A DNA stretch of 64,000 bases from Kaistella faecalis (GTDB taxonomy: Bacteria > Bacteroidota > Bacteroidia > Flavobacteriales > Weeksellaceae). The stretch covers positions 2,185,783-2,249,782 of the forward strand of contig NZ_CP078067.1 of NCBI RefSeq assembly GCF_019195395.1, given 5' to 3'. Made by a program: the position numbers and the translations under genes. Under the pieces are notes generated by a model. It did not search any database and was not told the origin of the DNA. It saw nothing but the letters and a program-made list of their open reading frames with translations. Within the stretch, counting starts at the first letter, position 1. Every line of letters begins with the position of its first letter. Positions 8,004 through 63,884 of this stretch are shown here, one piece after another.

Positions 8004-8011
8004 TATCTTTG
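8004..8011 (+). promoter_or_regulatory. -7 box of the helicase gene, leaderless arrangement
   Basis: TATCTTTG matches TAnnTTTG exactly and ends 4 bases before the ATG at 8016, so transcription would start at or next to the start codon. No TTG is seen at the usual -33 distance. Confidence 0.55.
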
Positions 8012-8015
8012 CAAA

Positions 8016-9368
8016 ATGGATAAAATCACTTTTGCCGATTTCGAATTACCGGAAAAAATTCTTGATGTACTGGCAGATTCAAATTTATTTGAACCGACAC
8101 CAATTCAGGAAAAATCCCTAAAACCTATACTTTCAGGCCGTGATGTAATGGGAATTGCGCAAACGGGAACCGGAAAAACGCTGGCTTATCTGCTGCCTGT
8201 TTTAAAAACATGGAAATACAACAAAAACGGAAATCCTACGGTAGTCATTCTTGTCCCTACGCGCGAGTTGGTGGTGCAGGTGACAGAAATCGTTAAAAAC
8301 CTTACCCAAAATATTACCGCACGTGTGATTGGAATTTATGGTGGAGTAAACATCAAAACGCAAAAACTGATGTTTGATGACGGCTGCGATATTTTGATTG
8401 GAACGCCCGGCAGAATCATGGATTTGGCGATCGATAACGCAATATCTCTGAAGGAAGTTCAGAAACTTATCGTCGATGAATTTGATGAAATGCTGAATCT
8501 TGGATTCAAGGCACAGCTCGCAAATATCTTTACGATGATGAGGGAGAAAAGACAGAATATTCTTTTTTCAGCGACCATGACTGAAGCTGTGGATGCTGTT
8601 TTGGACGAATATTTTGCAAATCCCATGGAAATTTCCCTTGCTAAATCGGGAACTCCGCTTGAAAAAATTGAACAGCTCGGATATAAAGTTGAAAACTTCA
8701 ACACCAAAATAAATCTTTTAGCGCATTTACTGAAAACTGAAGAAGACTTCTCCAAAGTTTTGGTGTTCTGCAACAATAAAAAGAATGCGGATTATCTTTT
8801 TACAAAAATCGAAGAACTTTTTCCGGATGAATTTGATGTGATTCACTCTAACAAATCCCAGAATTACCGTTTGAATGCGATGAGAAGTTTTGAGAAACAG
8901 GAAATAAGAGGTTTAATTACCACCGACATTATGGCGCGGGGACTCGATATTTCAGATATTACTCACGTTATTAATTTTGAAATTCCCGAAGTTCCGGAGC
9001 AGTATATTCACAGAATTGGTAGAACCGGACGAGCGGACAAAAATGGAATTTCGGTTTCCTTTATCACCAAAAAAGAAGAAACGCTGCTGCTTGATATTGA
9101 ACTCCTAATGGACAAAGCTGTTTCGATAAAAGATTTCCCTTCAGAAGTAAAAATCAATCCTGTAAAAATTGCGTCAGAAAAAGACGAGATTATCATGAAA
9201 AATGCTCACACCGTAAAGCTGGAAGAAGGCGGAGGTGCTTTTCATGAAAAGAAAGACAAAAACAAAAAAGAAAACTGGGGCGGACCAACGAAAAGAAATC
9301 CTCCGAAGACTAAAGGTGTAAACCGTGGTCAGCAGAAAGCTAAAGCTAAAGCAAGAAAGAAAAAATAA
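8016..9368 (+). CDS. DEAD-box family ATP-dependent RNA helicase (DEFD variant)
   Basis: A 450-residue RNA helicase with all core motifs: AQTGTGKT (48-55), PTREL (81-85), TPGR (130-133), SAT (185-187), ARGLD (307-311) and HRIGRTGR (332-339). Motif II reads DEFD (154-157) instead of DEAD; the catalytic Asp-Glu pair is kept and only the alanine is changed. A lysine- and glycine-rich basic tail (from about residue 400, ending KAKARKKK) is typical of RNA-binding tails in RhlE/CsdA-like proteins. Likely role: RNA unwinding in ribosome assembly or mRNA turnover. It stands alone between a lipoprotein gene and an SGNH hydrolase. I give no symbol because the E. coli-type subfamily cannot be fixed. Confidence 0.93.
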   Translation: MDKITFADFELPEKILDVLADSNLFEPTPIQEKSLKPILSGRDVMGIAQTGTGKTLAYLLPVLKTWKYNKNGNPTVVILVPTRELVVQVTEIVKNLTQNITARVIGIYGGVNIKTQKLMFDDGCDILIGTPGRIMDLAIDNAISLKEVQKLIVDEFDEMLNLGFKAQLANIFTMMREKRQNILFSATMTEAVDAVLDEYFANPMEISLAKSGTPLEKIEQLGYKVENFNTKINLLAHLLKTEEDFSKVLVFCNNKKNADYLFTKIEELFPDEFDVIHSNKSQNYRLNAMRSFEKQEIRGLITTDIMARGLDISDITHVINFEIPEVPEQYIHRIGRTGRADKNGISVSFITKKEETLLLDIELLMDKAVSIKDFPSEVKINPVKIASEKDEIIMKNAHTVKLEEGGGAFHEKKDKNKKENWGGPTKRNPPKTKGVNRGQQKAKAKARKKK

Positions 9369-9409
9369 ACCGCAGTTTTTTAAATTTTAAATCATTTGCG
9401 CGCCTTGAT

Positions 9410-10069
9410 TTATGGCTTCTTAAGATAAGGAGCCATTTCTTTTTGCCAGATTTGGTAACCTTCAGGCTTCATATGAAGCATGTCCGGCAGAAAAAGATCT
9501 CTACGGACTTTTCCATCTGGTCCGTTCATGGCTTTCGTAATGTCGATGTATTCAGCGTTCTGCTTCCTGTTCATGAAATTTTTAATCAGACTATTGGTGG
9601 CGGTAAATTTCGGCCATAAATTTTCCCTGCTTGGCGATAGTTTAATGGAGACATACGCAACGGGAACCTTGGGAAAGATCCTGCGAATCTCAGCATAAAA
9701 ATGTTTATATCGGTTAAAAACTTCCCGTGGTTTTAGATTTCCGTTAGCCGCAAAATCATTTTCGCCACAATAAATTAAAATTTGCTTGGGATAATATGGC
9801 TTTAGCAGTTCACTTGAATAAAAATTAAGATCGTTCAGTCCTGATCCTCCAAAGCCCCGATTAATAATGACATGTTCCGGAAAATATTCGTTAACATCTT
9901 TCCACATCGTAAAAGACGAACTTCCAAGCATTAAAACTGCCTCTGGTGGAGGAGGTATTTGGGCGTCCATGATTTTAAACTGCTCCACATCGTCCCAGAA
10001 AGCGGGTTTATCCTGAGCAGTAATTGCAGAAAAAATAAGTATGAGAAAGAAGGCAAGAATTTTTTTCAT
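9410..10069 (-). CDS. Secreted SGNH/GDSL-type hydrolase
   Basis: The start is set at the ATG at 10069 (MKKILAFF), giving 219 residues with a signal peptide ending near SAITAQ (about residue 19). The longer frame to 10126 adds an unlikely extension. SGNH blocks are visible: LGSSSF (48-53, nucleophile Ser51), Gly in the GFGGSG stretch (72-77), GEND (102-105, block III) and DMLH (196-199) with the catalytic Asp and His. Such enzymes hydrolyse esters; the sequence resembles acetylhydrolase/GDSL lipase-like family members acting on lipids or carbohydrate esters. The substrate cannot be told. Probably periplasmic. It stands alone on its strand, with a -7 box TACTTTTG at 10106-10113. Confidence 0.88.
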   Translation of the reverse strand: MKKILAFFLILIFSAITAQDKPAFWDDVEQFKIMDAQIPPPPEAVLMLGSSSFTMWKDVNEYFPEHVIINRGFGGSGLNDLNFYSSELLKPYYPKQILIYCGENDFAANGNLKPREVFNRYKHFYAEIRRIFPKVPVAYVSIKLSPSRENLWPKFTATNSLIKNFMNRKQNAEYIDITKAMNGPDGKVRRDLFLPDMLHMKPEGYQIWQKEMAPYLKKP

Positions 10070-10149
10070 TGGATATTTTTGAAAGATACTCAGTAATCTA
10101 AACAACAAAAGTAAAGAAAACCTCAAAACAAATTTAAAATATTATTAAT

Positions 10150-10259
10150 GAAAACTCCTCAGGTGTTCGCCTGAGGAGTATTACATTCGGAGCAGGATTT
10201 TCTTTCCAGCTTTTGTGTTTAGGAGTTGTTTTTTTGATAGTGTTGCTCCGTTGTTAAGG
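10150..10259 (-). ncRNA. Candidate small RNA with own promoter and terminator
   Basis: A near-perfect promoter (10264-10293) points into a 110-base non-coding stretch that ends in an intrinsic terminator: ACTCCTCAGG/CCTGAGGAGT (10154-10163 with 10170-10179) followed on the minus strand by TTTTC. In between, CGGAGCA and TGCTCCG (10188-10194 and 10244-10250) form a seven-base-pair closing stem around a 49-base, mostly A-rich unpaired region. There is no open reading frame of note. I do not recognise it as SRP RNA, 6S RNA, tmRNA or a known riboswitch. It could instead be the leader of the SGNH hydrolase gene ending in an attenuator. Confidence 0.55.
10154..10179 (-). terminator. Intrinsic terminator of the candidate small RNA
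   Basis: A ten-base-pair perfect stem with a six-base loop (10164-10169), followed on the minus strand by TTTTC. It is more than 230 bases past the last paralogue gene and fits the small RNA better than that operon. Confidence 0.7.
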
Positions 10260-10263
10260 GCTG

Positions 10264-10293
10264 CAAATATATGACTGCTAAGCTTTAAAGCAA
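10264..10293 (-). promoter_or_regulatory. Promoter of the candidate small RNA
   Basis: Minus-strand TTG (10291-10293), a 19-base spacer and TATATTTG (10264-10271) match the Bacteroidetes consensus. It is almost identical in form to the tRNA operon promoter at 31719-31749. Confidence 0.7.
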
Positions 10294-10301
10294 AAAAACA
10301 G

Positions 10302-10323
10302 GGGGGACAAATGGGGGACAAAT
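10302..10323. repeat. Two 11-base direct repeats upstream of the small-RNA promoter
   Basis: GGGGGACAAAT occurs twice head to tail (10302-10312 and 10313-10323), one helical turn apart, just upstream of the -33 element. The position and phasing suit a protein-binding site. It is the only G-rich patch in this spacer. Confidence 0.55.
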
Positions 10324-10415
10324 GAATTAAGTTGCTTTAATTGCTTGTAATATAGCTACTTGCACTTTTGGTTTTTGTCTCTAATTGGTCGTGTTTTTTT
10401 TATTTCCTTTTATTT

Positions 10416-11222
10416 TTACTGAGTTACCTGTGCGGTTACAAAGATTCTTGCCATGTCATTGTTGATATTTGAGCAGCTACTGGCATTACCACCGTACGTT
10501 ATTGAGCTGTATCCACTTGTCAGTTGGGGCAAGTTCCGGCCATAAATTGTTACAGTGTGGGTGCCCACCGGCAAATCGTTGAATACTCCTGCAAGATTAA
10601 ATTTTCTCCAGTTACAAATATAATTCTTACCAATGGCAGTATATTTACTTGCTAATTTTAACTGTCCGTTCACAAAAACACCAATGGCAAACTGAAATTC
10701 CTGATTGGTATTTACGTCATTATTGATCTGTACCATTCCTTCTGTGATTATAAGGTTTGTGTTCGATGCCTTGGTTATGGTTATGGTTGCACCTGCATTC
10801 AGATTGGTCCAACCTGTTGTATTGCTGTTAAGTGCAAATAGTGGTACGCTGGCAGGGAAATTATTGATGGTTGTACTTGTTATGGAATTACCTGAGGTGT
10901 TCTCGGTTTGTTTAATAATGGCTAAGCCGTCAGCAATTTCGAAAGCCCGATTCCATTGACCCTGATCCCAAAAATTGAGTTTGTTGGTAGTGGTATTCTG
11001 AACAAGTAATCCCTGAACGGGAGTTGGGACGGTTACAATATCCGTGCTGTTGGTAAGCGCGACTGCGGGAAAGAGTACACCCCTTTTGTCATCAGCGATG
11101 TGCAGTACAGCACTTGGATCCGGTGTGCTAGCGACAGATGTATTGGTCGCAATAAGAACCTGGGCATTTATCAGGACCAACCCAATCAGGTAAAATGTAA
11201 ATATGAGAGTTAAGGTTTTCAT
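10416..11222 (-). CDS. Secreted beta-rich protein, paralogue 3 of a three-gene set
   Basis: A 268-residue protein with a signal peptide ending near VLINAQ. It shares with its two upstream neighbours an N-terminal block seen in many flavobacterial exported proteins: an alanine/serine-rich PSAVLHI stretch, KRGVLFP (46-52), a GLLVQNT segment (71-77) and a tryptophan motif NFWDQGQW (83-90). The C-terminal half is predicted to be a beta-sandwich with two conserved cysteines (NYICNWRKF about 210 and SSCSNI about 253) that could form a disulfide. No catalytic motif and no T9SS sorting domain is seen. It starts two bases after its upstream neighbour ends, so the three are one operon. Likely envelope or secreted; function unknown. 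Confidence 0.8.
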   Translation of the reverse strand: MKTLTLIFTFYLIGLVLINAQVLIATNTSVASTPDPSAVLHIADDKRGVLFPAVALTNSTDIVTVPTPVQGLLVQNTTTNKLNFWDQGQWNRAFEIADGLAIIKQTENTSGNSITSTTINNFPASVPLFALNSNTTGWTNLNAGATITITKASNTNLIITEGMVQINNDVNTNQEFQFAIGVFVNGQLKLASKYTAIGKNYICNWRKFNLAGVFNDLPVGTHTVTIYGRNLPQLTSGYSSITYGGNASSCSNINNDMARIFVTAQVTQ

Positions 11223-11224
11223 AA

Positions 11225-12058
11225 TTAAAAGGAATATGGTTGATTAATCGTAATGGTACTGCTCATTGCGGATTCAAAGCCCGAGAGTGAGCTGCAGGAG
11301 CTGTTCGGGCCGCCGTAGGTTACGGTAAGCCCGCTGATATTAGGAGCAGAAATATTTCTTATTGCAAATTTCACGGTATGAGTTCCCTGACTTAAATTTT
11401 TTGCAATTCCATAAATCATGAACTGTCTGTATGAACATGGGGACTGAAAGTCGAGGTAAAGGGGCTTCACATCAATAAGCTTATCATTAACAAAAAAGCC
11501 AATTGTTGAGGTAATGCCGCCAGTATTGTTCGCTGCACCGTTATTTGCCTGGTACATTCCATTGATGTTAAGCAATAAATCATTCTGTGGTCTGTCAATG
11601 ACGATCGATTTTGTAAGTGCTGGAATTACGGTCCACTGTGATGTGTTTAATGTTTCACCGGAGGTATGAGCCGAATAACCTAAAAACTGATTGGGTGAGT
11701 TTCTGGTAAATGTAAATGCTGTAGAAGAGTTGGAAGAATAGTATTTCATCTGATTCATCAGGTTTTCCTGATTCATGTCGGTGAATAGATATTCCCATTT
11801 TGTGCCGTCCCAATAGTAAAATCCCTCTTTTCCACCCACAGAACCGTTAGTATTATAGATAATGAGTGATTCTTTGGGATTGGGTACTGTTGAAATATCG
11901 TTTCGCCCCTGTAAAAATACTTTAGGAAAAGAAACTCCTTTGTTACTGGAACGAATGTCTAAACTGGCCGACGGATGCGGAGTTCTTGTATTGATTCCCA
12001 CCTGTGCAGTAAGCATGCTGGTTATCATCATCAGCATAAATAAGTATAAATTTTTCAT
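11225..12058 (-). CDS. Secreted beta-rich protein, paralogue 2 of a three-gene set
   Basis: A 277-residue paralogue of its neighbours on both sides. The signal peptide ends at about SMLTAQ (residue 19). The shared block is present as NKGVSFPKV, LIIYNTNGS and FYYWDGTKW, and the C-terminal cysteines as PCSYRQF and NSSCSSL. The middle (about 95-150) is asparagine- and serine-rich and differs between the three. Sequence divergence among the set is high, so the triplication is old or under diversifying pressure. Function unknown; a structural or adhesive envelope role is a guess from composition. Confidence 0.8.
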   Translation of the reverse strand: MKNLYLFMLMMITSMLTAQVGINTRTPHPSASLDIRSSNKGVSFPKVFLQGRNDISTVPNPKESLIIYNTNGSVGGKEGFYYWDGTKWEYLFTDMNQENLMNQMKYYSSNSSTAFTFTRNSPNQFLGYSAHTSGETLNTSQWTVIPALTKSIVIDRPQNDLLLNINGMYQANNGAANNTGGITSTIGFFVNDKLIDVKPLYLDFQSPCSYRQFMIYGIAKNLSQGTHTVKFAIRNISAPNISGLTVTYGGPNSSCSSLSGFESAMSSTITINQPYSF

Positions 12059-12067
12059 CGAAGTGTT

Positions 12068-12877
12068 TTAGGGTTTTTCGGAAGTTTGTACGGTCATGAT
12101 CGATTTGTCCATCAGGGGACTCAAGTTGCTGCATGCTGTATGTTTGGATCCAAATGCGATACTTTGCGTAGCAACTTCTGTAACCCGTAAGGTTTCTCTC
12201 AGCTCTATCAGATGATTGCCGACACTTACATTGTTAATGTTAAAGTAGACATTGAAATCGTTATACAGACAGTTTTCGTTGCCGTTAAGAAGAAAATTCC
12301 GAACTCCAGCCAATTGCGAATCAACAAAAAGCGCAATGGAATAAGAAATAAAAGTGTTTTCTGACGCTGCAGAATTTACCTGTACAATACCACTTCCTGA
12401 AACCGAAACTGTATTCTGGGGTGAATAGACTGATATTGTTTTTGAAAGACCGGGAATAAGTTGAAAATCATGTACAGAGGCTGACTCGCCCATGGTGTAG
12501 GATACTCCGGTTACCGGTGTACTGTCTGTGACTCCTCCGCTTGAAACAGCGGATTCCGAGCGGACTACACCCAAGTATTTATAAATGTTGGCCGTATCCA
12601 GAGACGGATTCCATTTATTATTGCTCCAAAAGTAAAAACCCTTTCCGGTCGTGGTGTTCGTATTGTACACCAAAAGCGAATTAGCGGGATTTATAACAGG
12701 AGCCGCGTTGCTTAGATTGGGGATAGAAATGTTGGGAAGGAGTACGCCTTTATTGGCAGAAACAATCTTTAAGACTTCCGAATCATCGAAAGTGGTGACG
12801 TTTGGGCCTATGCCAATCTGCGCATAGCAGAATGCATAAGCGACCAGGAACCCTGGCACTAAATTTAATTTCATCAT
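12068..12877 (-). CDS. Secreted beta-rich protein, paralogue 1 of a three-gene set
   Basis: First gene of the operon, 269 residues, signal peptide ending near AFCYAQ. The shared block reads NKGVLLPNISI, LLVYNTNTTTG and FYFWSNNKW, with conserved cysteines in ENCLYNDF and HTACSNLS. Its ATG lies 19 bases after a TAGATTTG box (12897-12904). It is divergent from the membrane-tethered regulator at 13078, across a 200-base AT-rich spacer, which suggests that regulator as its controller (inference from position only). Function unknown. Confidence 0.8.
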   Translation of the reverse strand: MMKLNLVPGFLVAYAFCYAQIGIGPNVTTFDDSEVLKIVSANKGVLLPNISIPNLSNAAPVINPANSLLVYNTNTTTGKGFYFWSNNKWNPSLDTANIYKYLGVVRSESAVSSGGVTDSTPVTGVSYTMGESASVHDFQLIPGLSKTISVYSPQNTVSVSGSGIVQVNSAASENTFISYSIALFVDSQLAGVRNFLLNGNENCLYNDFNVYFNINNVSVGNHLIELRETLRVTEVATQSIAFGSKHTACSNLSPLMDKSIMTVQTSEKP

Positions 12878-12896
12878 GTTGTGTTTTGTGTTAATG

Positions 12897-12904
12897 CAAA
12901 TCTA
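12897..12904 (-). promoter_or_regulatory. -7 box of the three-paralogue operon
   Basis: TAGATTTG on the minus strand matches TAnnTTTG and ends 19 bases before the first ATG. A TTG lies only 12 bases upstream, so the -33 element is uncertain. Confidence 0.5.
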
Positions 12905-13077
12905 TTAAAATTATTACAAATAATTACAGTGAAAACACCCCTTTTTGTGATTCAAAGTTTGATAAGTATTTAAAAGTTGCTTTTTTTTAATAAATTTATG
13001 CGATAATAAATACGTCAGTTATTAGCATTTTTTGACATTTTAAAACTTATTAAACTTTCTCACCCGATACCCGCTGA

Positions 13078-17556: not shown

Positions 17557-18168
17557 ATGCCTTTATACCGAGATTTTTCTGATCAAAATGCCACCATTCT
17601 TCTCTGGAAGTTTGATGAGCATGAAGACCTGGATCCGGAAATTCTGCTCGAGAAAGAAAATTTTGAGAAAGTGAAGGATTATCATCCCACTAAACTTAAG
17701 GAATTGCTGCTGGTAAGAAAAATCCTGAAATCACAGCTGCCTGAACATAAAATTCTATACAATGGGAGAGCGCCCTATCTTGATCCTCCGGATTTCCAAA
17801 TATCCATTACCCATTCGTTTCCGTTTGCGGCGCTTGCAATTTCTAAAAATAAAGTGGGGATTGATATAGAGCCTTTCAATCCGAAAATCATCAGGATTAG
17901 ACATAAATTTCTTCATGACGAAGAAGCTGGTTTCATCGAACCGGATAAGGAGACTGCCTATCTTACCGTGATCTGGTCGCTGAAAGAGAGTTTATACAAA
18001 ATACATCATTCCAATTACTGGTCTCTTAAAAAACATTACGAAGTAAAACCTTTCAGTCTCGATTTTCCTTTCAATATTGTGTGCCGCGTACATGATGAAA
18101 CGGTTTCTGATCTTTACAGCGCACGGGTAGAATTTTTCGGGAATTACTGCCTAACGATTGTAGACTGA
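17557..18168 (+). CDS. 4'-phosphopantetheinyl transferase superfamily protein
   Basis: A 203-residue Sfp-type enzyme that would move phosphopantetheine from CoA to a carrier-protein serine. The family motifs are clear: SITHS (83-87), GIDIE (101-105, magnesium ligands Asp103 and Glu105) and WSLKESLYK (140-148, with Glu144 and Lys148). No carrier-protein or secondary-metabolite genes lie nearby, so the target may be the fatty-acid carrier or a distant pathway. Its 3' end overlaps the 3' end of the convergent FUSC gene by 25 bases, so neither has room for a private terminator. Confidence 0.9.
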   Translation: MPLYRDFSDQNATILLWKFDEHEDLDPEILLEKENFEKVKDYHPTKLKELLLVRKILKSQLPEHKILYNGRAPYLDPPDFQISITHSFPFAALAISKNKVGIDIEPFNPKIIRIRHKFLHDEEAGFIEPDKETAYLTVIWSLKESLYKIHHSNYWSLKKHYEVKPFSLDFPFNIVCRVHDETVSDLYSARVEFFGNYCLTIVD

Positions 18169-20405
18169 AGTTCCGGGTCTAATTTTTCAGCACCTTTTCG
18201 CTGCTCTTTGGCAACATCATAAATAAGTTCCAGGATTTCGCTCAGATTTTTTAACTCGGTAAGGCGCGTAATTCTGTTGGGATCCCGTCTATTTATAATT
18301 TCGCTCTCCGAAATCTCCTTTTTTCTTTTTTCCAGCAGTTTACCTACTGAATCTTCAGGTTTCAGATTGCTTTCCTCAACAATAGCACGGTTGAATTTTT
18401 TCTGCTCGAGAATAAGACTGGTCCGTAGAAGTTCTGCTGAAATTTTTCGCGTCCAGCTGTCGAAATCGATTTCGGGGTAATCTTTAGCTGTTTTTGAATA
18501 TTGTGAAAACGAAGCAATATAGGCGGTAATCAGATGTGCAGTATTCACAAACTGATGTACGTGTTCCATTTTTTTCTGCTGATTTTTCGGATCCGAAATC
18601 ATCCGCTGAAAATTGTCGGAAAGATTAGCCAAATCAATGATAGCATCTTTTCTTTTCAGTTTATAATCCTGAATTCCAATGCTTTCGTCTTTAAAAAAGT
18701 CCATGGCAGCCTTAAAATATTTCAGATTACTTTTTGCAGATTTCTTCATGAAATCCAAATTCTGGGTATGTTCCCAAACCGGCAGAACAAAGTATGAAAC
18801 AGCAAAAGCTACAACGCCGGCAAGCGCAGTATCAAAAATCCTGTCCCGGAAGATGTTGTTGACATTTCCCGGATTCAGGAAGTTGAAAGTGAGAAAGATA
18901 TAAATCGTCATAAACAACACCGCCCAGAAATATTTGGCCTTCAAAAAACTGAAACACATAATCATACTCAGCAAAAGAAGGGTAAATAATACGGTATTGC
19001 TGGTAACTGTTAGAAGAATTCCATAAGCCAGCACCGCACCTATTGCCGTTCCGTACAGACGCAGAAGATTCCGGTGTTTGGTGGTAGAGTAGGCTGGTTT
19101 CAGAATGGCGACTATGGTAATTAAAATCCAGTAAGAGTGACCAATTCCCAGAAAATCCAGTTTCGAAATAAGATAGCCGATGAGCAGTGCAAGCGTAATG
19201 CGGATTGAATGCCGGAAGTGGCCAGACTTCAGGGAGATATTATTCCGAAGTACCTTGAAATTCATTTTTTCATCAGCGGTGACAAATTTCTGCAGGTCTA
19301 GACCGGTAGAAAGACTCTTGGCCAGTTTTTGATCCTGCATAAACACTTTGTACATGGTATTAATCTCGTCTGTGATGTCTGTAATCCTCACCAGTATAAT
19401 CCGCAGAATCATAAAATCCTCGAGCGTCTCCGGATTTAATTTTTTATTCCGTAAATCAAAGTACTCGTCAAAAACAGCATCAAGTTCGTCATCTAAGTTC
19501 CTCAGGGATTTTGCTTTTGTACCACTCTGCAGCGCAATCCCGATATTGCTAAGCTCTTCAGCAAGGTTTGATAAATATTCGCTCACCGATTTCAGAAAAC
19601 CGGTATCGCCGAAGCTTTCCTGAATTTTTCTGTAATCACTTTCAGAAGTCATTAATTTCTCGTGTAAATCAATAGAATTCAGAAACATCAACATAAGAAG
19701 CCGACTTGTGGTAGTGGATTCGTTTACTATTTTTCGGGTTTTAAAAACTGTTTCGCGCGTCTCTTCCTGCAAATTTTTAATTTTTACCTGTTGGGAAATA
19801 ACCTGTAAGTAGAGTGCATCGAAATCTGGATCAGGAAGATAAAACTTTGATTTTATTTTGAGATAATCGCCAAGTTCAAGGTAATTTTCGCCAATCATCT
19901 GGCCTGCAAGTTTATAGGGCTGTATTTTTGAAACTACCAGAAAAACAAGTAAATAACAAGCAGAGCCCGCCACAAAAATGAGGGAGTTTTTTACGACATT
20001 TCCATCGCTGAGGTGGCCATCGATAAAAATTGCCAGTACAACAAGAGAAAGGGATCCTACAGCTGCCAGCCTTTGCCCATAAACGCCGATCATGGAGAAA
20101 AACATACCGAAAAAAATAATTTCGAGATAAATGATGGGAGGAAAATCCTTCAGTAATGTGGCAATTACAGAAACTGAAAAGAAACATATAATGGCGAATA
20201 TAAGAGCGTTACGTCTACGGATAAAAGGGCCGGGCTGATCGGTAAGTCCTACAAAACTCGTTGCGAGAGGAAAAAGAAAATATTCTTTCAGTAACCCGAA
20301 GTATGCTAAAATAATGCTGGGAACTACAATTGCCAGAGTAATCCGCACTGCCGAAAAAATATACTGGCTGGTAGCGAATTTCCTGAGTTCTGTAGCATAG
20401 TTCAT
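18144..20405 (-). CDS. FUSC-family inner membrane protein (YccS-like)
   Basis: A 753-residue protein from the ATG at 20405 (MNYATELRKF); the open frame upstream to 20432 crosses the promoter. It has two membrane blocks, at about 20-160 and about 400-530, each of several hydrophobic helices, separated and followed by large helical cytoplasmic domains. This duplicated layout is typical of the FUSC/YccS/YhfK family, linked to aromatic-acid efflux and fusaric acid resistance. The substrate is unknown. No membrane-fusion partner gene is adjacent, as is usual for YccS-type members. Transcription is predicted to be leaderless. Confidence 0.88.
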   Translation of the reverse strand: MNYATELRKFATSQYIFSAVRITLAIVVPSIILAYFGLLKEYFLFPLATSFVGLTDQPGPFIRRRNALIFAIICFFSVSVIATLLKDFPPIIYLEIIFFGMFFSMIGVYGQRLAAVGSLSLVVLAIFIDGHLSDGNVVKNSLIFVAGSACYLLVFLVVSKIQPYKLAGQMIGENYLELGDYLKIKSKFYLPDPDFDALYLQVISQQVKIKNLQEETRETVFKTRKIVNESTTTSRLLMLMFLNSIDLHEKLMTSESDYRKIQESFGDTGFLKSVSEYLSNLAEELSNIGIALQSGTKAKSLRNLDDELDAVFDEYFDLRNKKLNPETLEDFMILRIILVRITDITDEINTMYKVFMQDQKLAKSLSTGLDLQKFVTADEKMNFKVLRNNISLKSGHFRHSIRITLALLIGYLISKLDFLGIGHSYWILITIVAILKPAYSTTKHRNLLRLYGTAIGAVLAYGILLTVTSNTVLFTLLLLSMIMCFSFLKAKYFWAVLFMTIYIFLTFNFLNPGNVNNIFRDRIFDTALAGVVAFAVSYFVLPVWEHTQNLDFMKKSAKSNLKYFKAAMDFFKDESIGIQDYKLKRKDAIIDLANLSDNFQRMISDPKNQQKKMEHVHQFVNTAHLITAYIASFSQYSKTAKDYPEIDFDSWTRKISAELLRTSLILEQKKFNRAIVEESNLKPEDSVGKLLEKRKKEISESEIINRRDPNRITRLTELKNLSEILELIYDVAKEQRKGAEKLDPELQSTIVRQ

Positions 20406-20409
20406 TTTA

Positions 20410-20417
20410 CAAATGTA
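20410..20417 (-). promoter_or_regulatory. -7 box of the FUSC gene, leaderless arrangement
   Basis: TACATTTG on the minus strand matches TAnnTTTG and ends 4 bases (TAAA) before the ATG at 20405. Confidence 0.55.
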
Positions 20418-20433: not shown

Positions 20434-20456
20434 AAAGCCTCAGTTGCTGAGGCTTT
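20434..20456 (-). terminator. Terminator of the porU-porV operon
   Basis: A ten-base-pair stem AAAGCCTCAG (20434-20443) with CTGAGGCTTT (20447-20456) around TTG; on the minus strand a T run follows. It lies between the porV stop and the FUSC promoter. Confidence 0.88.
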
Positions 20457-27301: not shown

Positions 27302-27321
27302 TTATCTTAAAATATTTAAAG

Positions 27322-27350
27322 AATCCTTCTGTAATTGCAGAAGGATTTTT
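27322..27350 (+). terminator. gldJ terminator
   Basis: A ten-base-pair stem AATCCTTCTG (27322-27331) with CAGAAGGATT (27338-27347) and a T run to 27350. It ends directly next to the murF -7 box at 27351. Confidence 0.88.
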
Positions 27351-27358
27351 TATTTTTG
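27351..27358 (+). promoter_or_regulatory. murF -7 box, leaderless arrangement
   Basis: TATTTTTG matches TAnnTTTG and ends 4 bases (AAAA) before the murF ATG at 27363. It abuts the gldJ terminator, so murF has its own start site in very little space. Confidence 0.55.
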
Positions 27359-27362: not shown

Positions 27363-28637
27363 ATGAATGCAGCCTCTTTCTATCCGCTTTTTTTAAAGGC
27401 CAATAAAGTAACCATCGACAGCAGAACCGTTGAGAAGAACGATATCTTTTTTGCCTTTTCCGGTGAAAATTTCAATGCCGCTGTTTCCGCGGAAGAAGCT
27501 ATAGATAAAGGAGCTTTAGCCGTCATTGTTGAAGACAAAACTTTTGAAAAGAAAGAAAGCAAAATTTTCTACGTGCCCTCGACCTTAGATTTTTTACAGG
27601 AACTGGCTTCCTATCACCGTAATGAAGTGAAGATTCCAATAATTGCCCTTACGGGAAGCAATGGAAAAACCACGACGAAAGAGATCATTCATGCTGTTTT
27701 ATCTCAGAAATACAACGTCCAGTATACGTTCGGCAATCTCAATAATCATATCGGGGTTCCGCTTACTCTACTTTCCATTAAACCCGAACATCAACTGGCT
27801 GTTGTGGAAATGGGGGCAAACCATCAGAAAGAGATTGAGCTGCTGTGCAAAATCGCGCAACCGAATTACGGATACATCACCAACTTCGGGAAAGCTCATC
27901 TGGAAGGCTTCGGCGGTTTTGCAGGGGTAATCAAAGGTAAATCTGAGCTTTATGATTATCTGAAGTCTGCCGGACAGACCATTTTAGTCAATGAAAATGA
28001 TCCGCTGCAGGTAGAAAAGACCCAAAATTATTCTCCACGCATCACTTTTGGGAACAGCGGTTCAGATTATCGTTTTACTGAATTCTCCAATGATAATTTT
28101 GTAGGTTTAAGTTTTAATGAAGAAACCGCGCAGTCGAAACTTACCGGAAATTATAATTTCACCAATTTATGTGCGGCTGCGAGTTTAGGATTTCATTTCG
28201 GGGTAGATTTCGCTCAGGTCAAAAATGCCATCGAAAATTATACGCCGACCAACATGCGGTCCCAGATTATGGAAATGGGCGGTAAAACTTTTGTGTTGGA
28301 TACTTATAACGCGAATCCGAGTTCGATGACAGAATCGCTGAAAAATTTCAGCGCTTTCGAAGGTTCCAAAACTATAATTATCGGCGATATGCTCGAATTG
28401 GGCGAAGAATCAGAAAAAGAACACCGTGAAATTTTAGCGTTGGCCAAATCCCTTCATTTTAATGAAATCATCACTGTGGGAAAGCACTTCAAGAAGGTTA
28501 ATGTCCATGCGCAGTCTTATGAGACCTCACAGGAGCTTTCTCAGGCACTGGAAAAAAATAAAATTCATTCTAAAAACATTCTGCTTAAAGCATCCCGGGG
28601 AATCGCTTTAGAGAAAGTTCTGGATTTTATCGTTTAG
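27363..28637 (+). CDS. murF: UDP-N-acetylmuramoyl-tripeptide-D-alanyl-D-alanine ligase
   Basis: MurF adds D-Ala-D-Ala to the UDP-MurNAc-tripeptide, the last cytoplasmic step of peptidoglycan precursor synthesis. The 424-residue protein has the Mur ligase layout: N-terminal UDP-binding domain with VTIDSRTV, the ATP-binding loop TGSNGKTTTKE (about 96-106), the central domain with FGNLNNHIGVPL, and a C-terminal domain containing DTYNANPSSM. It stands apart from other mur genes and follows gldJ. Its stop overlaps the stop of the convergent Nudix gene by four bases. Confidence 0.96.
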   Translation: MNAASFYPLFLKANKVTIDSRTVEKNDIFFAFSGENFNAAVSAEEAIDKGALAVIVEDKTFEKKESKIFYVPSTLDFLQELASYHRNEVKIPIIALTGSNGKTTTKEIIHAVLSQKYNVQYTFGNLNNHIGVPLTLLSIKPEHQLAVVEMGANHQKEIELLCKIAQPNYGYITNFGKAHLEGFGGFAGVIKGKSELYDYLKSAGQTILVNENDPLQVEKTQNYSPRITFGNSGSDYRFTEFSNDNFVGLSFNEETAQSKLTGNYNFTNLCAAASLGFHFGVDFAQVKNAIENYTPTNMRSQIMEMGGKTFVLDTYNANPSSMTESLKNFSAFEGSKTIIIGDMLELGEESEKEHREILALAKSLHFNEIITVGKHFKKVNVHAQSYETSQELSQALEKNKIHSKNILLKASRGIALEKVLDFIV

Positions 28638-50453: not shown

Positions 50454-50461
50454 TAAATTTG
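50454..50461 (+). promoter_or_regulatory. ppc -7 box, leaderless arrangement
   Basis: TAAATTTG matches TAnnTTTG and ends 4 bases (TTAT) before the ppc ATG at 50466. No TTG at the usual distance. Confidence 0.5.
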
Positions 50462-50465: not shown

Positions 50466-53006
50466 ATGCAAAACGAAGAGAAAGCCGAAAAATTCAGACA
50501 GACCGTCGAGAATAAGTTCCAGATTTACAACTCATTATTTATGAGTTTGCCTTACGATAAAATGACTAATATCGGTATGCTGCTGCCTTTTCTCTATGAA
50601 GAAAGCAAAGCAGGATACGAAGAGGGAAAGAGTCCGGAAGAAATTGTAGAAGAGTTTTTCAGCAAACATACCGAACTGGAAACCGAAGCGCAGAAAACCG
50701 AACTGCTGTTCAAAATCATTCAGTATATCGAGAGGCAGGTTGTTCTTTTCGACAGTATTGAAGACGCGGCATTTCCCGGACTTCATTCGGAAAGCGAAGC
50801 GGGGACACTGCTGCAACTCCACGAACGGGCTTTACAGGAACATCAGCTGGAAGCGACCAGAAAGAAAATAAAAGATTTTGCAGTAAGGGTGGTCTTCACA
50901 GCGCATCCGACTCAGTTTTACCCGAATTCTGTACAGCGGATTCTGCACGATCTGCGGTCAGCAATTATGAAAGATTCGGTGACGGAAATCGATATGCTTC
51001 TGCAGCAGCTTGGTAAAACACCTTTTCTAAACAGGGAAAAACCCACGCCGCTCGATGAGGCGATGAGTATTATTTTTTACCTCAGATATGTATATTACGA
51101 TTCCATCGGCGAGCTTTACAGAAAGATCAAAAACTCTTTTGGCAACGATCATTTTGTGCCGCCTCACGATATTTTTCAGCTGGGATTCTGGCCCGGCGGT
51201 GACCGCGACGGAAATCCCTTCGTTACTGCAGAAATCACGCAGAAAGTGGCTCAGGAACTGCATATTTCAGTTCTTAAATCCTATTATGAGCACCTGAAAA
51301 ACCTGAGAAGAAGACTGAGTTTCCGCGGTGTTTCTGAAGTTCTCGAGCAGTTCAGTCATGAACTTTACGATGCGATTTTCAAGGAAGAAAAAATCACAGC
51401 GGAGCATATTTTAAGCAGAATCAATGAAGCAGACCATATTCTGACCGCGCAGCATAACGGACTTTTCAGAAATCTTCTGGAAGATTTCAAAGACCGCGTA
51501 AGAATATTCGGAACCCATTTTGCAACACTGGATATCCGCCAGGACAGCCGAGTCCATCAAAGCGTAGTTGATGAAATTATCGCCAAAAAGTCCGGACTTG
51601 ATATGCAGAATATCACCACCGAACATAAAATAGAATGGCTGCTGGAAACGGATGTTATTTTAGACCCGAGCGATTTCGAAGGGATTACCAAAGACACGCT
51701 TGAAAACATTTATAACATCAGAAATATTCAGAAGAATAATGGAGAAAGAGGCCTCAGCCGCTATATTATTTCAAATTCTGATGAGGTGAAAGATGTGCTG
51801 AATGTGTTCGGAATGTTCAGGCTTTGCGGTTACCGCGAAGAGGAAATCAACATCGATATCGTTCCGCTTTTCGAAACCATGGAAGGTCTGGATGCCGGTG
51901 AAAATGTAATGAAAGCACTGTATGAACTCCCGGTTTACAGAAAACATCTGGAAAGAAGAGGTAACGCACAGACCATTATGCTTGGTTTTTCCGACGGTAC
52001 CAAAGACGGCGGCTATCTGAAAGCCAACTGGGAAATCTATGAGACCAAGGAACAGCTCACCAGAATTTCAGACGAGAATAATATCAAAGTCATTTTCTTC
52101 GACGGACGCGGCGGTCCGCCAGCGAGAGGAGGAGGGAAGACCCACGATTTCTACGCTTCTCAGGGAAAAACCATTGCCAACAATAAAATAGAAATCACGA
52201 TTCAGGGACAGACGATTACAAGTGTTTTCGGGAACAAAGACCAGGCAAAATATAATTTCGAACAGCTTTTAACTGCCGGGATTGAAAATGATGTCTTCAA
52301 AAATTCAAAGAAAGATTTAACAGAAAAGGAAAGAAATCTCATTCAGGAACTCGCGGAAATCAGTTTCAGGAAATATTCAGATTTAAAGGCGCACCCGATG
52401 TTTGTACCGTATCTGCAGGAAATGAGCACGCTGGAATATTATGGAAGAACCAATATCGGCAGCCGGCCAAGCAAAAGAGGCGGAAATAACGAACTCAAGT
52501 TCGAGGATCTGCGTGCGATTCCGTTTGTAGGGTCGTGGAGCCAGCTGAAACAGAATGTTCCCGGGTTTTTCGGGTTTGGTTTTGCTTTGAATGAACTGAA
52601 AATACAGGGAAGGTTTGACGAGATACACGCGCTTTACAAAGGGTCGGATTTCTTTAAAACCTTGGTGCTGAATTCCATGATGAGCATGAACAAATCTTAT
52701 TTTCCGCTCACGTATTATATGAAAAACAATGAGAAATTCGGAAGTTTCTGGAATGTGCTGTTTGAAGAGTATGAACTTTCAAAATCAATGATGCTTGAAT
52801 TAACCGGCTTTAAAATGCTGATGGAAGAAGAGCCGCTTTCGAGAAAGTCGGTCAAGATCAGAGAAAAGATTGTATTACCGCTATTGAGTATTCAGCAATA
52901 TGCGCTGATGAAAATCCAGAAGAATGAAGGCAACCGGGAAGCGTATGAAAAACTGGTGATGCGGTCGCTGTTCGGGAATATCAATGCGAGCAGGAACTCG
53001 GCCTAA
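50466..53006 (+). CDS. ppc: Phosphoenolpyruvate carboxylase
   Basis: Adds bicarbonate to PEP to give oxaloacetate, refilling the TCA cycle. The 846-residue protein is close to the usual size. Active-site motifs are FTAHPTQ with His147 (about 143-149), [15 protein letters not shown] (about 240-254), [14 protein letters not shown] (about 544-557) and GSRPSKR (about 665-671). The C-terminus ends RNSA rather than the QNTG of many PEPCs, a change seen in some lineages that may alter allosteric behaviour. The mRNA may be leaderless. A DUF2200 gene follows 10 bases downstream. Confidence 0.96.
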
Positions 53007-58505: not shown

Positions 58506-58534
58506 TGGAATAATATCGCTTAAACTCTAAAAAC

Positions 58535-58570
58535 AACAGTCCCGTTCAAATATCGAACGGGACTGTTTTT
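58535..58570 (+). terminator. Terminator between galE and the barrel gene
   Basis: A thirteen-base-pair stem AACAGTCCCGTTC (58535-58547) with GAACGGGACTGTT (58555-58567) and flanking A and T runs; bidirectional between convergent genes. Confidence 0.9.
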
Positions 58571-58590
58571 ATAATAAAACTAACTCTTTT

Positions 58591-61110: not shown

Positions 61111-61251
61111 GTCAGTCGGTTTGTAATCGCTCGATACCCTTCACGTGAAGCGGGGTACAGCCGATTAGATGTCAATTTTTTAATGTATTAGCTAATTAGA
61201 CGCAGAATTTGCCTGAATGTTAAAGCGGAAGATGTTAAATAATGTTAACAT

Positions 61252-62286
61252 TTATCTGATATTCTTCGAATTCAGCCATTCCTGATAATCCCGGGCGTTT
61301 TTAGCATGTTCGGCATCGCTTGCAGTAAAGCGGTGAAATCCGAATTTATCGGGATCTGCAGCCATGAAGATATAGTTGTTCCGGTCGGGATTAAGAACCG
61401 CGTCAACCGAACTTTTATCGGTAATACAAATCGGTCCCGGTGGAATTCCTGCATTGGCATAAGTGTTATAAGGAGAAGGGTGTCTCAGATGTTTGTAAAG
61501 AACCCTTTTTATCGGAGTGGTAAAATTGGTCTCTTTGTTAATTGCATAAATTACTGTTGGATCGCTCTGTAGTTTCATTCCTTTTCGGTAACGGTTCAGG
61601 TACAGGCCTGCAATCGTCTTCTGTTCATCCGGTTTTCCGCCGGATTCTTTGTACACAATCGATGCAAGCGCATAAATCTGATCGCGTGTTAAGCCGCTCT
61701 GTGCTTCTTTCGCTTTTCTTTCGGCGGTCCAGAAATCGTTGTACTGGTCCTCGAATTTCTGGAAAAACTCATCCGGAGTTACCGTCCAGAAAAAATTATA
61801 GGTGTCGATGAAAAAATATTTCTTCAGGTCTTCAGCGTTGCTGTAGCCTTTCTTAACCGCTATTTTATTCAGGTCTTTTGCAAATCTCAGCGAGTCGAGC
61901 TCGGTTTTTTTCGTTACACGCCCTACCATTTGATATACATCTCCAAAATCTCCGATCCTGAAAGTGTTTTCGGTCTGGTTGCCGGCTTTAATCATATTCA
62001 CGAGATCGGTATTGCTGGTTCCGGATTTAATGCGGTAACGTCCTGCTTTGAAGAAACGGTCCATGCTTTTATCCAGAGCAACCGCCTTAAAGGATTCCCT
62101 GTTTTTAATATATGGCGTAATGGAATCCAGGATTGAATTGAAGTTTGCCGAGTGCGGAATCAGTACATAGCCTTCTTTAGCGACATTGCTTCCGAAAAAT
62201 TTCTGATAATACCGCAAACCGAAAAATCCGCTGATTAACAGAATAACCAATGCAATGACCGCAACAACCGAAATCCCTTTTTTCAT
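61252..62286 (-). CDS. mltG: Endolytic transglycosylase MltG
   Basis: MltG cuts nascent glycan strands and ends peptidoglycan chain growth at the membrane. The 344-residue protein has one N-terminal membrane helix (about 7-28, VVAVIALVILLISGFFGLRYY) and a YceG catalytic domain in the periplasm. Glu214 in SIVYKESGGKPDE is the catalytic glutamate (E218 in E. coli). The LQSDPTVIYA motif and the AGIPPGPI near the C-terminus are typical. It lies 42 bases after dapF, so the two may share a transcript. Confidence 0.95.
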   Translation of the reverse strand: MKKGISVVAVIALVILLISGFFGLRYYQKFFGSNVAKEGYVLIPHSANFNSILDSITPYIKNRESFKAVALDKSMDRFFKAGRYRIKSGTSNTDLVNMIKAGNQTENTFRIGDFGDVYQMVGRVTKKTELDSLRFAKDLNKIAVKKGYSNAEDLKKYFFIDTYNFFWTVTPDEFFQKFEDQYNDFWTAERKAKEAQSGLTRDQIYALASIVYKESGGKPDEQKTIAGLYLNRYRKGMKLQSDPTVIYAINKETNFTTPIKRVLYKHLRHPSPYNTYANAGIPPGPICITDKSSVDAVLNPDRNNYIFMAADPDKFGFHRFTASDAEHAKNARDYQEWLNSKNIR

Positions 62287-62328
62287 ATAATTATAATTGA
62301 TTTTCTAATCTAGATGTTTTTCGCTGTT

Positions 62329-63105
62329 TCAGAGGTTTATTTTTCCTTTGAAGACCTGTTTTGCAGGACCTTCCAGCCAAATATTTGTGAACGCACCGCC
62401 GTGCTGTTCGGCGTATACTTTAAGATTTCCGCCCAAAACTTTTACATTAACTGAACTGTTGCTTTTATCTTTAAGATAAACCAGTGCTGATGCGGTAACC
62501 CCTGTTCCGCAGCTGAATGTTTCATCTTCAACTCCGCGTTCGTACGTTCTGACGAATATTTCGTTTTCCCCGGTTTCTTCCACGAAATTCACGTTGATGC
62601 CTTCTGTTTTGTAAGTCGCAGAATTACGGATTCTGTTACCTTCAGCATACACTTTAAAGTTTTTCACATCCTCCACATACTGTACGAAATGCGGCGAACC
62701 GGTATTAAGAACATGGTCTGCACCATCTTTATTTATTGCAGAAACATCAATCATTTTCAGTTTCACGATGCCGTTGCTGATTTCTGCTTCATGAATTCCG
62801 TCGACTGCTTCAAAACTTGCCCGGTCTTCGAAAATATCCAGAAAATGGGCAAACGCTACAATGCATCGGCCACCATTTCCGCACATGGTACTTTCATTTC
62901 CGTCGGAATTATAATATACCATTCTGAAGTCGGTGTTGGCATCATTTTCAAGTAAGATAAGGCCGTCGCCACCGATTCCGAATCTTCGGTCACAAAGCCT
63001 CTCAATCAACTCTTTTTCTTTAGGAAACTGCATATCGCGGTTATCGATCATTACGAAATCGTTGCCGGTTCCCTGGTATTTGTAAAATTCAATTGTATTC
63101 TGCAT
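62329..63105 (-). CDS. dapF: Diaminopimelate epimerase
   Basis: Converts LL- to meso-diaminopimelate, for lysine and peptidoglycan. The 258-residue enzyme has the paired acid-base cysteines Cys75 (MCGNGGR) and Cys199 (FSCGTGV). The N-terminus FYKYQGTGNDFVMID is the family start. It heads a probable dapF-mltG unit and is preceded by a TATCTTTG box (63137-63144) 31 bases before the ATG. Confidence 0.97.
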   Translation of the reverse strand: MQNTIEFYKYQGTGNDFVMIDNRDMQFPKEKELIERLCDRRFGIGGDGLILLENDANTDFRMVYYNSDGNESTMCGNGGRCIVAFAHFLDIFEDRASFEAVDGIHEAEISNGIVKLKMIDVSAINKDGADHVLNTGSPHFVQYVEDVKNFKVYAEGNRIRNSATYKTEGINVNFVEETGENEIFVRTYERGVEDETFSCGTGVTASALVYLKDKSNSSVNVKVLGGNLKVYAEQHGGAFTNIWLEGPAKQVFKGKINL

Positions 63106-63136
63106 AAGAAACCAAAATGGTTATAAAATATGGCAG

Positions 63137-63144
63137 CAAAGATA
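63137..63144 (-). promoter_or_regulatory. dapF -7 box
   Basis: TATCTTTG on the minus strand matches the consensus. No suitable TTG is present, so support is moderate. Confidence 0.4.
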
Positions 63145-63206
63145 CTTAAAAGGGATAACCTGAATTGATGTGGATGCGTTAAAGTTTTTACAAAATAACC
63201 GAACGA

Positions 63207-63872
63207 TTACGGCATCAGTTTCCGTGGCTTTTTCCATTCCAAATACCCAATCACCGCCATTACGGTGAATACCAGATATTGGACGGAGGTAATTCCCAAT
63301 CCTTTGTAAAGCATCATGGGGATGCAGATGATATCGCCGATGATCCAGAAAATCCAGTTCTCGATCTTTCTTTTTGCCATGAGCCACATGCCCACAAGAA
63401 AAATAGCGGTGGTAAAAATATCCAGCCAGTTGGCCCAGTCGAGATGATAAAGCCCGAAATCGGCATTTTCCGCAGAAAACTGATTATCAATAAACGGCTT
63501 ATAATAGTAAACAACCGTCACCAAAATTAAGCTGATTAGGAAAAGTCCGGCAGAAACTGCCCACTCTTTTCTTGTGGCGGCCGACACTTCTACATGAACA
63601 TGGTCCTCGGAACTTTTTGCCCAAAGTACCCAGCCATAAACGCTCATCACGGTATAGTAGAAGTTGATCATCATATCGCCCAGCAACCCGAATTTAAAAA
63701 GGATATAAACGTAAAGTGCCGTAGAAATAATGCCGGTTGGGTAGACCCAGATATTCTTTTTAATCGAAAAATAGACACTCAGAAGACCGAAAAGCGTGGC
63801 GGTTGCTTCCAGAATAATCTGATATGTTTCGTAGGATTCGTAAGGTTTTATGAAGAGTTCATGCAGATTCAT
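63207..63872 (-). CDS. pnuC: Nicotinamide riboside transporter PnuC
   Basis: A 221-residue inner-membrane transporter with seven predicted helices of the PnuC/SWEET-like fold. It imports nicotinamide riboside for NAD synthesis. Family features include the ATLFGLLSVYFSIKKNIWVYP segment near the N-terminus (about 26-46), YGWVLWAKS (about 80-88), and a C-terminal lysine-rich end (YLEWKKPRKLMP). No NadR or other NAD gene is in the window, and the leader is too short for an NAD-II or NiaR-type control element. The mRNA may be leaderless. Confidence 0.93.
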   Translation of the reverse strand: MNLHELFIKPYESYETYQIILEATATLFGLLSVYFSIKKNIWVYPTGIISTALYVYILFKFGLLGDMMINFYYTVMSVYGWVLWAKSSEDHVHVEVSAATRKEWAVSAGLFLISLILVTVVYYYKPFIDNQFSAENADFGLYHLDWANWLDIFTTAIFLVGMWLMAKRKIENWIFWIIGDIICIPMMLYKGLGITSVQYLVFTVMAVIGYLEWKKPRKLMP

Positions 63873-63876
63873 GAAC

Positions 63877-63884
63877 CAAAGATA
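63877..63884 (-). promoter_or_regulatory. pnuC -7 box, leaderless arrangement
   Basis: TATCTTTG on the minus strand ends 4 bases (GTTC) before the pnuC ATG. No TTG at the usual distance. Confidence 0.5.

What the first reader, a model, noticed from the sequence alone, without database searches (positions are those of the whole stretch)
8004..63884. Five genes with TAnnTTTG exactly 4 bases before the ATG: predicted leaderless mRNAs
The helicase (TATCTTTG at 8004-8011), FUSC (20410-20417), murF (27351-27358), ppc (50454-50461) and pnuC (63877-63884) genes each have a perfect -7 box whose G lies exactly 4 bases before the start codon. The genes are unrelated and on both strands. With A+T about 60%, the chance of the six fixed bases at one set offset is about 0.0005, so about 0.02 hits are expected among some 42 genes. 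In Bacteroidetes the -7 box puts transcription a few bases downstream, so the RNA would start at the ATG. This would fit a phylum that makes little use of Shine-Dalgarno pairing. In murF the box abuts the gldJ terminator.
Basis: partly seen in the sequence, partly recalled or inferred. Interest (0 to 1): 0.8.

Follow-up and report, generated by a model that had tools for sequence, protein, structure and literature searches.

The report
Conserved promoters making leaderless messenger RNAs
Five unrelated genes of a Kaistella-like bacterium carry their promoter so close to the first codon that the messenger RNA should begin at the start codon itself, an arrangement kept in related species and seemingly much commoner in some other lineages of the same phylum.

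Summary
All five TAnnTTTG boxes lie where stated, each with exactly four bases between the G and the ATG. It is not chance: in 484 called genes from 800 kb of the same genome the box-to-ATG distance is bimodal, with a sharp peak at 4-5, a trough at 6-13, and a broad leadered mode at 14-25. In relatives (Kaistella, Cloacibacterium, Soonwooa and others) 95 of 108 distinct orthologous starts keep the box 3-6 bases before the ATG. The ATGs are real starts: no other in-frame start codon lies within the first 19 codons, and these codons evolve as coding sequence. Published Flavobacterium maps put transcription starts 4-5 nt after this box, so leaderless mRNAs are the best reading; no 5' end was measured here. 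Leaderless mRNAs are already reported as a minority in this phylum (5.5% in F. psychrophilum). What seems new is lineage variation: 242 of 295 class genomes show more boxes at 4-5 than at 8-9 bases, from no excess in family f2 to 3.5-fold in f44; in 440 kb of one f44 genome no leadered mode stands out.

The parts
8004..8011 (+). -7 box TATCTTTG of the helicase gene, offset 4
   Evidence: offset 4 in 18 of 19 distinct orthologous starts
8016..9368 (+). DEAD-box RNA helicase gene, predicted leaderless
20410..20417 (-). -7 box TACATTTG of the FUSC (YccS-like) gene, offset 4
   Evidence: offset 4 in 15 of 21 distinct orthologous starts
18144..20405 (-). FUSC/YccS-like membrane protein gene, predicted leaderless
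27351..27358 (+). -7 box TATTTTTG of murF, offset 4
   Evidence: offset 4 in 17, 5 in 1, 6 in 1 of 21 distinct orthologous starts
27363..28637 (+). murF gene, predicted leaderless
27317..27352 (+). terminator-like hairpin of gldJ; its last two bases are the first two of the murF box
   Evidence: gldJ; fold
50454..50461 (+). -7 box TAAATTTG of ppc, offset 4
   Evidence: offset 4 in 21, 3 in 2 of 25 distinct orthologous starts
50466..53006 (+). ppc (phosphoenolpyruvate carboxylase) gene, predicted leaderless
63877..63884 (-). -7 box TATCTTTG of pnuC, offset 4
   Evidence: offset 4 in 5, 5 in 15 of 22 distinct orthologous starts
63207..63872 (-). pnuC gene, predicted leaderless
20434..20456 (-). 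terminator-like hairpin between porV and the FUSC gene
   Evidence: (porV)
63939..63963 (-). terminator-like hairpin upstream of pnuC

Best explanation
Each box is the -7 element of a promoter for the primary Bacteroidota sigma factor, placed so that RNA polymerase starts on the A of the ATG (offset 4) or about one base before it (offset 5). The mRNA then has no 5' leader, and the ribosome must bind the 5'-terminal AUG directly. Shown: box, spacing, true start codon, conservation in orthologs, bimodal distance in the genome. Inferred: that transcription starts 4 nt after the box in this species, and that leaderless translation (ribosomes loaded with initiator tRNA on a terminal AUG) is the main route for these genes.
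For: Peak at offset 4 in the genome sample: 10 of 484 genes, and 5 at offset 5, against about 0.9 per offset in the trough 6-13; reversed-motif control 0-2 per offset and 0 at offsets 4-6. In the whole genome 83 perfect sites at offset 4 against 31 for the reversed pattern. Conservation: box 3-6 bases before the ATG in 95 of 108 distinct orthologous starts of the five genes while bases further upstream diverge; in helicase orthologs whose start lies one codon further in (L210; L015/L212), that ATG is again 4 bases from the box. Starts are fixed: in 4 of 5 genes no ATG/GTG/TTG lies upstream in frame, the next in-frame start codon downstream is codon 20 or later, and codons 2 to 19-25 show third-position excess in orthologs. 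Published spacing: 4-5 nt between box and TSS, box at -12 to -5. None of the five has G at the two variable positions, as in the revised TAHHTTTG consensus. The five stand at likely transcription-unit starts: divergent neighbours upstream of helicase and ppc, terminator-like hairpins upstream of murF, FUSC and pnuC.
Against: No 5' end was measured. In the own genome sample the operon-start test is not significant (2 of 20 against 91 of 374, P 0.11). 13 of 108 orthologous starts lack a perfect box at 3-6 bases: FUSC 6 (five with one base of the box changed at the same place, one with a box at 18), murF 2, ppc 2, pnuC 2, helicase 1. Capnocytophaga and Weeksellaceae TAE3-ERU29 orthologs lack the box at this spacing. 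Leadered boxes also keep their spacing fairly well in some genes (18-20, 19-22), so conserved spacing is not unique to these genes. Absence of SD-like 4-mers is no special mark: leadered genes lack them too (0 of 104). The -33 element was not tested.
Confidence: 0.87

Rival explanations
1. The boxes are working promoters, but most protein comes from a second, leadered mRNA: another promoter upstream, or read-through from the gene before; the leaderless RNA is a minor or regulatory isoform.
For: Alternative promoters are common in bacteria (recalled). Imperfect boxes further upstream were not excluded; FUSC has 77 and ppc 88 noncoding bases upstream.
Against: Terminator-like hairpins precede murF, FUSC and pnuC; the noncoding gaps are short (51-88 nt for the four genes listed; pnuC not listed); no second TAnnTTTG begins within 59 bases upstream of any of the five ATGs; conservation of the spacing suggests that the leaderless RNA matters.
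Confidence: 0.09
2. Chance: the reader noticed a coincidence in an A+T-rich window.
For: The window is about 6 times richer than its genome (5 of 38 against 10 of 484), which points to selection of a striking window.
Against: Peak in the genome and conservation in 95 of 108 orthologous starts.
Confidence: 0.01
3. The motif acts in translation (an AU-rich ribosome-landing element) and not as a promoter.
For: Published work describes AT-rich signals of unknown role before Bacteroidetes starts (passage).
Against: It is the sigma-factor consensus, with no G at the two variable positions; the same box forms the leadered mode 14-25 bases upstream; in the G039 and G082 samples it is depleted in genes inside operons (2 of 51 and 10 of 45 tight co-directional against 45 of 151 and 98 of 213 without box).
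Confidence: 0.01
4. The start codons are mis-assigned, and translation begins further downstream on a leadered mRNA.
For: Starts were called mechanically (first ATG).
Against: No in-frame ATG/GTG/TTG before codon 20 (FUSC), 26 (ppc), 45 (helicase) or within 60 codons (murF, pnuC); N-termini conserved with third-position excess.
Confidence: 0.02

Closest known systems
Leaderless mRNAs of Flavobacterium psychrophilum (PMC9723704, passages read)
   Same: Same phylum, same TAnnTTTG box at -12 to -5, leaderless mRNAs as a minority (5.5% of mRNAs preceding 890 CDSs).
   Different: Measured there, predicted here. The passages treat the class as minor; here its placement is shown to be conserved between genera for five genes and to vary between families of the class.
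Flavobacterium johnsoniae promoters (PMC6847099, section 14 read)
   Same: TAHHTTTG box, 4 or 5 nt to the TSS.
   Different: 87% of leaders there exceed 10 nt; leaderless initiation judged not to explain the absence of SD.
Bacteroides thetaiotaomicron short 5' UTRs (PMC7366714, passages read)
   Same: A small class (about 3.7%) with 5' UTR under 10 nt.
   Different: The genes named there are transposases, sensor kinases and transporters.
Leaderless genes of Actinobacteria and Deinococcus-Thermus (PMC3160421, passages read)
   Same: A promoter box set a short distance before the start codon.
   Different: Pribnow-type box. That survey found leaderless genes in 1 of 37 Bacteroidetes/Chlorobi genomes; its authors name the Pribnow-only search as a limitation that may underestimate groups such as Bacteroidetes, but think high missed percentages unlikely.

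Membership tests
Bacteroidota primary-sigma promoter (-7 box) | TAnnTTTG, with no G at the two variable positions | tested here: met
   5 of 5 boxes; consensus
Bacteroidota primary-sigma promoter (-7 box) | TSS 4-5 nt downstream of the box | not testable with these tools
   needs 5'-end mapping
Bacteroidota primary-sigma promoter (-7 box) | Located at the start of transcription units | tested here: met
   the five genes: divergent neighbour (helicase, ppc) or terminator-like hairpin upstream (murF, FUSC, pnuC). As a class: significant in G039 and G082, not in the own genome (P 0.11)
Bacteroidota primary-sigma promoter (-7 box) | -33 element TTTG | not tested
   reported as much less evident in F. 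johnsoniae
Leaderless mRNA | 5' end at or within a few nt of the start codon | not testable with these tools
   predicted from box spacing only
Leaderless mRNA | The codon at the predicted 5' end is the true start codon | tested here: met
Leaderless mRNA | No upstream ribosome-binding context | tested here: inconclusive
   0 of 23 own leaderless-type genes have an SD-like 4-mer, but neither have leadered genes (0 of 104); the upstream bases are taken up by the box itself
Leaderless mRNA | Translated by direct binding of ribosomes to the 5'-terminal AUG | not testable with these tools
   needs toeprinting or reporters

The most novel reading that the evidence does not exclude
Leaderless transcription is an old, conserved second mode of gene expression across this class of Bacteroidota, near absent in some families and the default in others: in genus g47 (family f44) the primary-sigma box is enriched before genes only at leaderless spacing (3-7 bases, with a tail to 13) and the leadered mode is gone, although the genome looked at (G082) keeps its 16S anti-SD, bS21 and an S1-type protein.
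Probability: 0.65. Interest if true: 0.72.

Novelty: new member of a known kind. Interest (0 to 1): 0.52.

Why it matters
Bacteroidota mostly lack Shine-Dalgarno signals, and how their ribosomes choose starts is still being worked out. A class of genes whose promoters are held at leaderless spacing, and lineages where that is the rule, would be a natural test of leaderless initiation in bacteria that keep, or have lost, the anti-SD. The spacing is also a strong start-site signal that the StartLink passages I read do not describe for this group, and it warns that expression tools built around a leader may not suit such lineages.

Tried and rejected
Chance, start mis-annotation and a purely translational motif were tested and rejected. 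Loss of the anti-SD as the cause of leaderless use was considered: the own genome and G021 have lost CCTCC, but G082, strongly leaderless-leaning, keeps it, as do the two f2 genomes G065 and G101, which show no excess (5 genomes seen; 7 of the 12 searched gave no match to the 16S pattern). Loss of bS21 or S1 as a cause was considered: 10 of 10 genomes examined have a bS21 match over the cut-off, and 10 of 10 match the S1 model rpsA, though none over its cut-off. Gene-level profiles of G065 and G218 were too small to use (53 and 44 genes; 40 genes with another codon model); for f2 I rely on whole-genome counts (8 genomes) and a raw 146 kb profile (2 sites at offset 4). Other g47 genomes could be looked at in only 42 kb, too little to judge: 0 sites at offset 4, 3 at offset 5. 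G113 was seen in 3 kb only, and 20 kb of G292 were fetched but not analysed. The unnamed families could not be named. Paper searches (listings, plus passages of eight papers, two of them with one section) showed no report of leaderless-dominated Bacteroidota; PMC6028130 (GeneMarkS-2) is not held. [quoted passage not shown]
Full report
WHAT WAS CLAIMED AND WHAT IS THERE. Each of the five boxes is at the stated place and has exactly four bases between its G and the ATG. The genes are a DEAD-box helicase, a YccS-like FUSC protein, murF, ppc and pnuC. TAnnTTTG is not over-represented in the window as a whole (72 sites, shuffles 64.9 +/- 8.5); what is unusual is where it stands. The window lies in a genome held as one contig of 2,658,401 bases. 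By ppc its relatives are Kaistella and other members of the Chryseobacterium group.

CHANCE. I took 40 spaced stretches (800 kb) of the same genome, called genes with a simple codon model and used the first ATG of each open frame, a rule blind to the box. In 484 complete genes the box TAHHTTTG occurs at offset 4 in 10 genes and at offset 5 in 5; at offsets 6 to 13 in 7 in all; then a broad second mode runs from 14 to 25 (peak 11 at offset 19). A reversed motif gives 0-2 per offset and 0 at offsets 4-6. Against the trough rate the offset-4 count has P 3e-8. Counting every ATG of the 800 kb, without gene calls, offset 4 is the highest of 46 offsets (29; 20 at offset 5, 15 at 6, 8 at 7, 6 at 8; next highest 24 at 19 and 21). 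In the whole genome there are 83 sites at offset 4, against 31 for the reversed pattern, and the five of the window are among them; at offsets 4-5, 8-9 and 18-19 the whole-genome counts are 142, 70 and 131. The window holds 5 of its 38 called genes at offset 4, more than its genome (Fisher P 0.003), so it was a rich window, but the signal is not made by selection.

TRUE STARTS. In helicase, murF, ppc and pnuC no ATG, GTG or TTG lies upstream in frame; FUSC has a TTG 27 bases upstream. The first in-frame start codon downstream is codon 45 (helicase), 20 (FUSC), 26 (ppc), or none in 60 codons (murF, pnuC). Orthologs align from the methionine, and their differences in codons 2-19 (FUSC) or 2-25 (the other four) fall mostly on third positions (for example 53/24/149 in helicase). 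The line 'up open nt' is a faulty print and was not used.

CONSERVATION. Orthologs came from 28 named records for ppc and from 24 of those genomes for the other four genes. One search pooled these loci, dropped alignments under 55% identity or starting after residue 6 and starts without ATG, and merged identical start regions; one search lists what was dropped. Of the distinct starts left, the box stands at offset 4 in 18 of 19 helicase, 15 of 21 FUSC, 17 of 21 murF, 21 of 25 ppc and 5 of 22 pnuC starts; pnuC has offset 5 in 15 more, ppc offset 3 in 2, murF offsets 5 and 6 in one each. In all, 95 of 108 are at 3-6. Bases further upstream diverge. Three helicase orthologs start one codon further in: in L210 and L015/L212 that ATG is again 4 bases from the box, and in L211 the same spacing holds with one base of the box changed. 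Misses among the 108: FUSC L170, L175, L177, L178, L180 (one base of the box changed, same place) and L187 (box at 18); murF L135 (one base changed) and L140; ppc L024, L025; pnuC L162, L166; helicase L211. Dropped before the count: L186 (FUSC, GTG start, box at offset 4), L027 (ppc, offset 5), L190, L191, L142, L143, L165, L167, L028, L018 in the helicase search, and three loci with partial pnuC matches; of these L142, L143, L165, L167, L190 and L191 show no perfect box at this spacing. As a comparison, five leadered window genes with orthologs in the same loci keep their box less exactly: 18-20 (8 of 9), 19-22 (14 of 14), 29-34 (17 of 17), 21-25 (12 of 20; 7 no box) and 31-38 (11 of 13; 8 more without ATG were dropped); three other leadered genes had no orthologs there. 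The contrast is one of degree.

MECHANISM. In F. johnsoniae many TSSs lie 4 or 5 nt after the box (PMC6847099, section 14); in F. psychrophilum the box spans -12 to -5 (PMC9723704, passages). Offset 4 therefore puts the A of the ATG at +1. The trough at 6-13 suggests that leaders of about 2-9 nt are avoided: either none, or enough for ordinary binding (inference). In this genome leadered genes have A-rich upstream bases, whereas in leaderless-type genes the box fills that place; neither class has SD-like 4-mers (0 of 104 and 0 of 23). Three of the five genes have a terminator-like hairpin just upstream; that of gldJ shares its last bases with the murF box, so a terminator and a promoter fit into about 60 bases.

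CLASS-WIDE PICTURE. On 295 genomes of the class (unnamed; Bacteroidia in GTDB, recalled) I counted TAHHTTTG before ATG at 4-5, 8-9 and 18-19 bases. Offsets 4-5 exceed 8-9 in 242 of 295 genomes, 66 of them after Bonferroni correction; median ratio 1.3 (table typed by hand). By family the ratio runs from 0.71 (f70, 1 genome), 0.82 (f33, 5 genomes) and 0.99 (f2, same order as the window, 8 genomes) to 3.52 (f44, 9 genomes, all of genus g47); the window's family f1 has 1.39 (3 genomes; the own genome 142 to 70, the two others 180 to 146 and 171 to 139). In f44 each of the 9 genomes has more than twice as many sites at 4-5 as at 8-9 and far fewer at 18-19 (23-44 per genome). The three f40 genomes have the highest absolute counts of the 295 (517, 425, 409). 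Offsets 8-9 are not a pure background, since some short-leader promoters fall there.

TWO LEANING LINEAGES. In 397 kb of G039 (f40) and 440 kb of G082 (f44) the box density in noncoding DNA at offsets 3-7 is 48 and 50 per 1000 positions, against 10.9 and 2.3 at offsets 14-25; in the own genome it is 9.5 and 15.2. In G082 there are 40 boxes at 3-7, 8 at 8-13 and 21 from 14 to 200 bases; the last are 0-2.3 per 1000 by bin, comparable with the antisense box (0.6-3.5) though above the reversed motif (0-0.4), so no leadered mode stands out. By genes, G082 has 46 boxes at offsets 3-7 and G039 has 53, among 278 and 254 called genes. GTG also peaks at offsets 4-7 in G082 (14, 7, 14, 7 against 1-8 at other offsets), and 13 pairs of back-to-back sites lie within 40 bases of each other. 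Ten leaderless-type G082 proteins were scanned: two (glycine-cleavage T protein, amine oxidoreductase) have a family domain beginning within the first 11 residues, so their starts can hardly lie further downstream. Genes with the box at 3-7 are depleted among tightly packed co-directional genes in G039 and G082 (P 3e-5 and 0.002), as promoters should be; in the own genome the trend is the same but not significant (P 0.11).

ANTI-SD. The 16S 3' end of the own genome reads GGCTGGAACATCTCATTTTAG: CCTCC is lost, as in G021 of the same family; two f2 genomes and G082 keep it. PMC10783764 (section 21) lists Weeksella, Chryseobacterium and Riemerella as lacking it. Leaderless use and anti-SD loss are thus not coupled in the five genomes seen.

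WHAT IS KNOWN. Leaderless mRNAs are reported as 5.5% (F. psychrophilum, passages); 5' UTRs under 10 nt as 3.7% (B. thetaiotaomicron, passages); 87% of F. johnsoniae leaders exceed 10 nt. One survey found leaderless genes in 1 of 37 Bacteroidetes/Chlorobi genomes, seeking Pribnow boxes only, and its authors doubt that many were missed (passages); StartLink's authors describe the group by non-canonical AT-rich ribosome sites (passages); PMC5397173 says a high leaderless fraction had been reported (passage). So the five genes are new members of a known kind. The conserved spacing, the bimodal distance and the lineages dominated by leaderless placement I did not find in print, by the searches named under Tried and rejected.

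LIMITS. No 5' end was measured; only perfect boxes were counted; the gene caller is simple and misses genes; the lineages are unnamed; f44 rests at gene level on one genome, although the whole-genome counts agree in 9 of 9.

Noticed in passing
L214 (G000:C1:1129600-1129800): The 16S rRNA 3' end of the window's genome lacks the anti-Shine-Dalgarno CCTCC (reads ACATCTCATTTT); such loss is reported for Chryseobacterium and Weeksella.
   Followed up: yes
L078, L107, L110, L118 (G082): Divergent gene pairs separated by only 35-79 bases in which both genes have a box at leaderless spacing, so two promoters share a tiny gap.
   Followed up: partly
G082 sample (L078, L079, L100-L119): GTG codons also peak 4-7 bases after the box, suggesting leaderless GTG starts; the FUSC ortholog L186 (Cruoricaptor) starts with GTG at offset 4.
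   Followed up: partly
G039, G079, G113 (family f40): Highest absolute numbers of boxes at 4-5 bases of all 295 genomes (409-517), with a leadered mode still present in the G039 sample.
   Followed up: partly
27317-27358: The gldJ terminator-like hairpin and the murF box share bases; the same layout is visible in the murF orthologs L120-L134 printed.
   Followed up: partly
G077:C20:57177-58163: The best S1-type protein match in this genome is short (open frame 372 aa against 576-652 in the other nine genomes examined).
   Followed up: no
L170, L176, L183 (FUSC orthologs): The protein search reported one stop inside the match in these three orthologs; where it lies was not checked.
   Followed up: no
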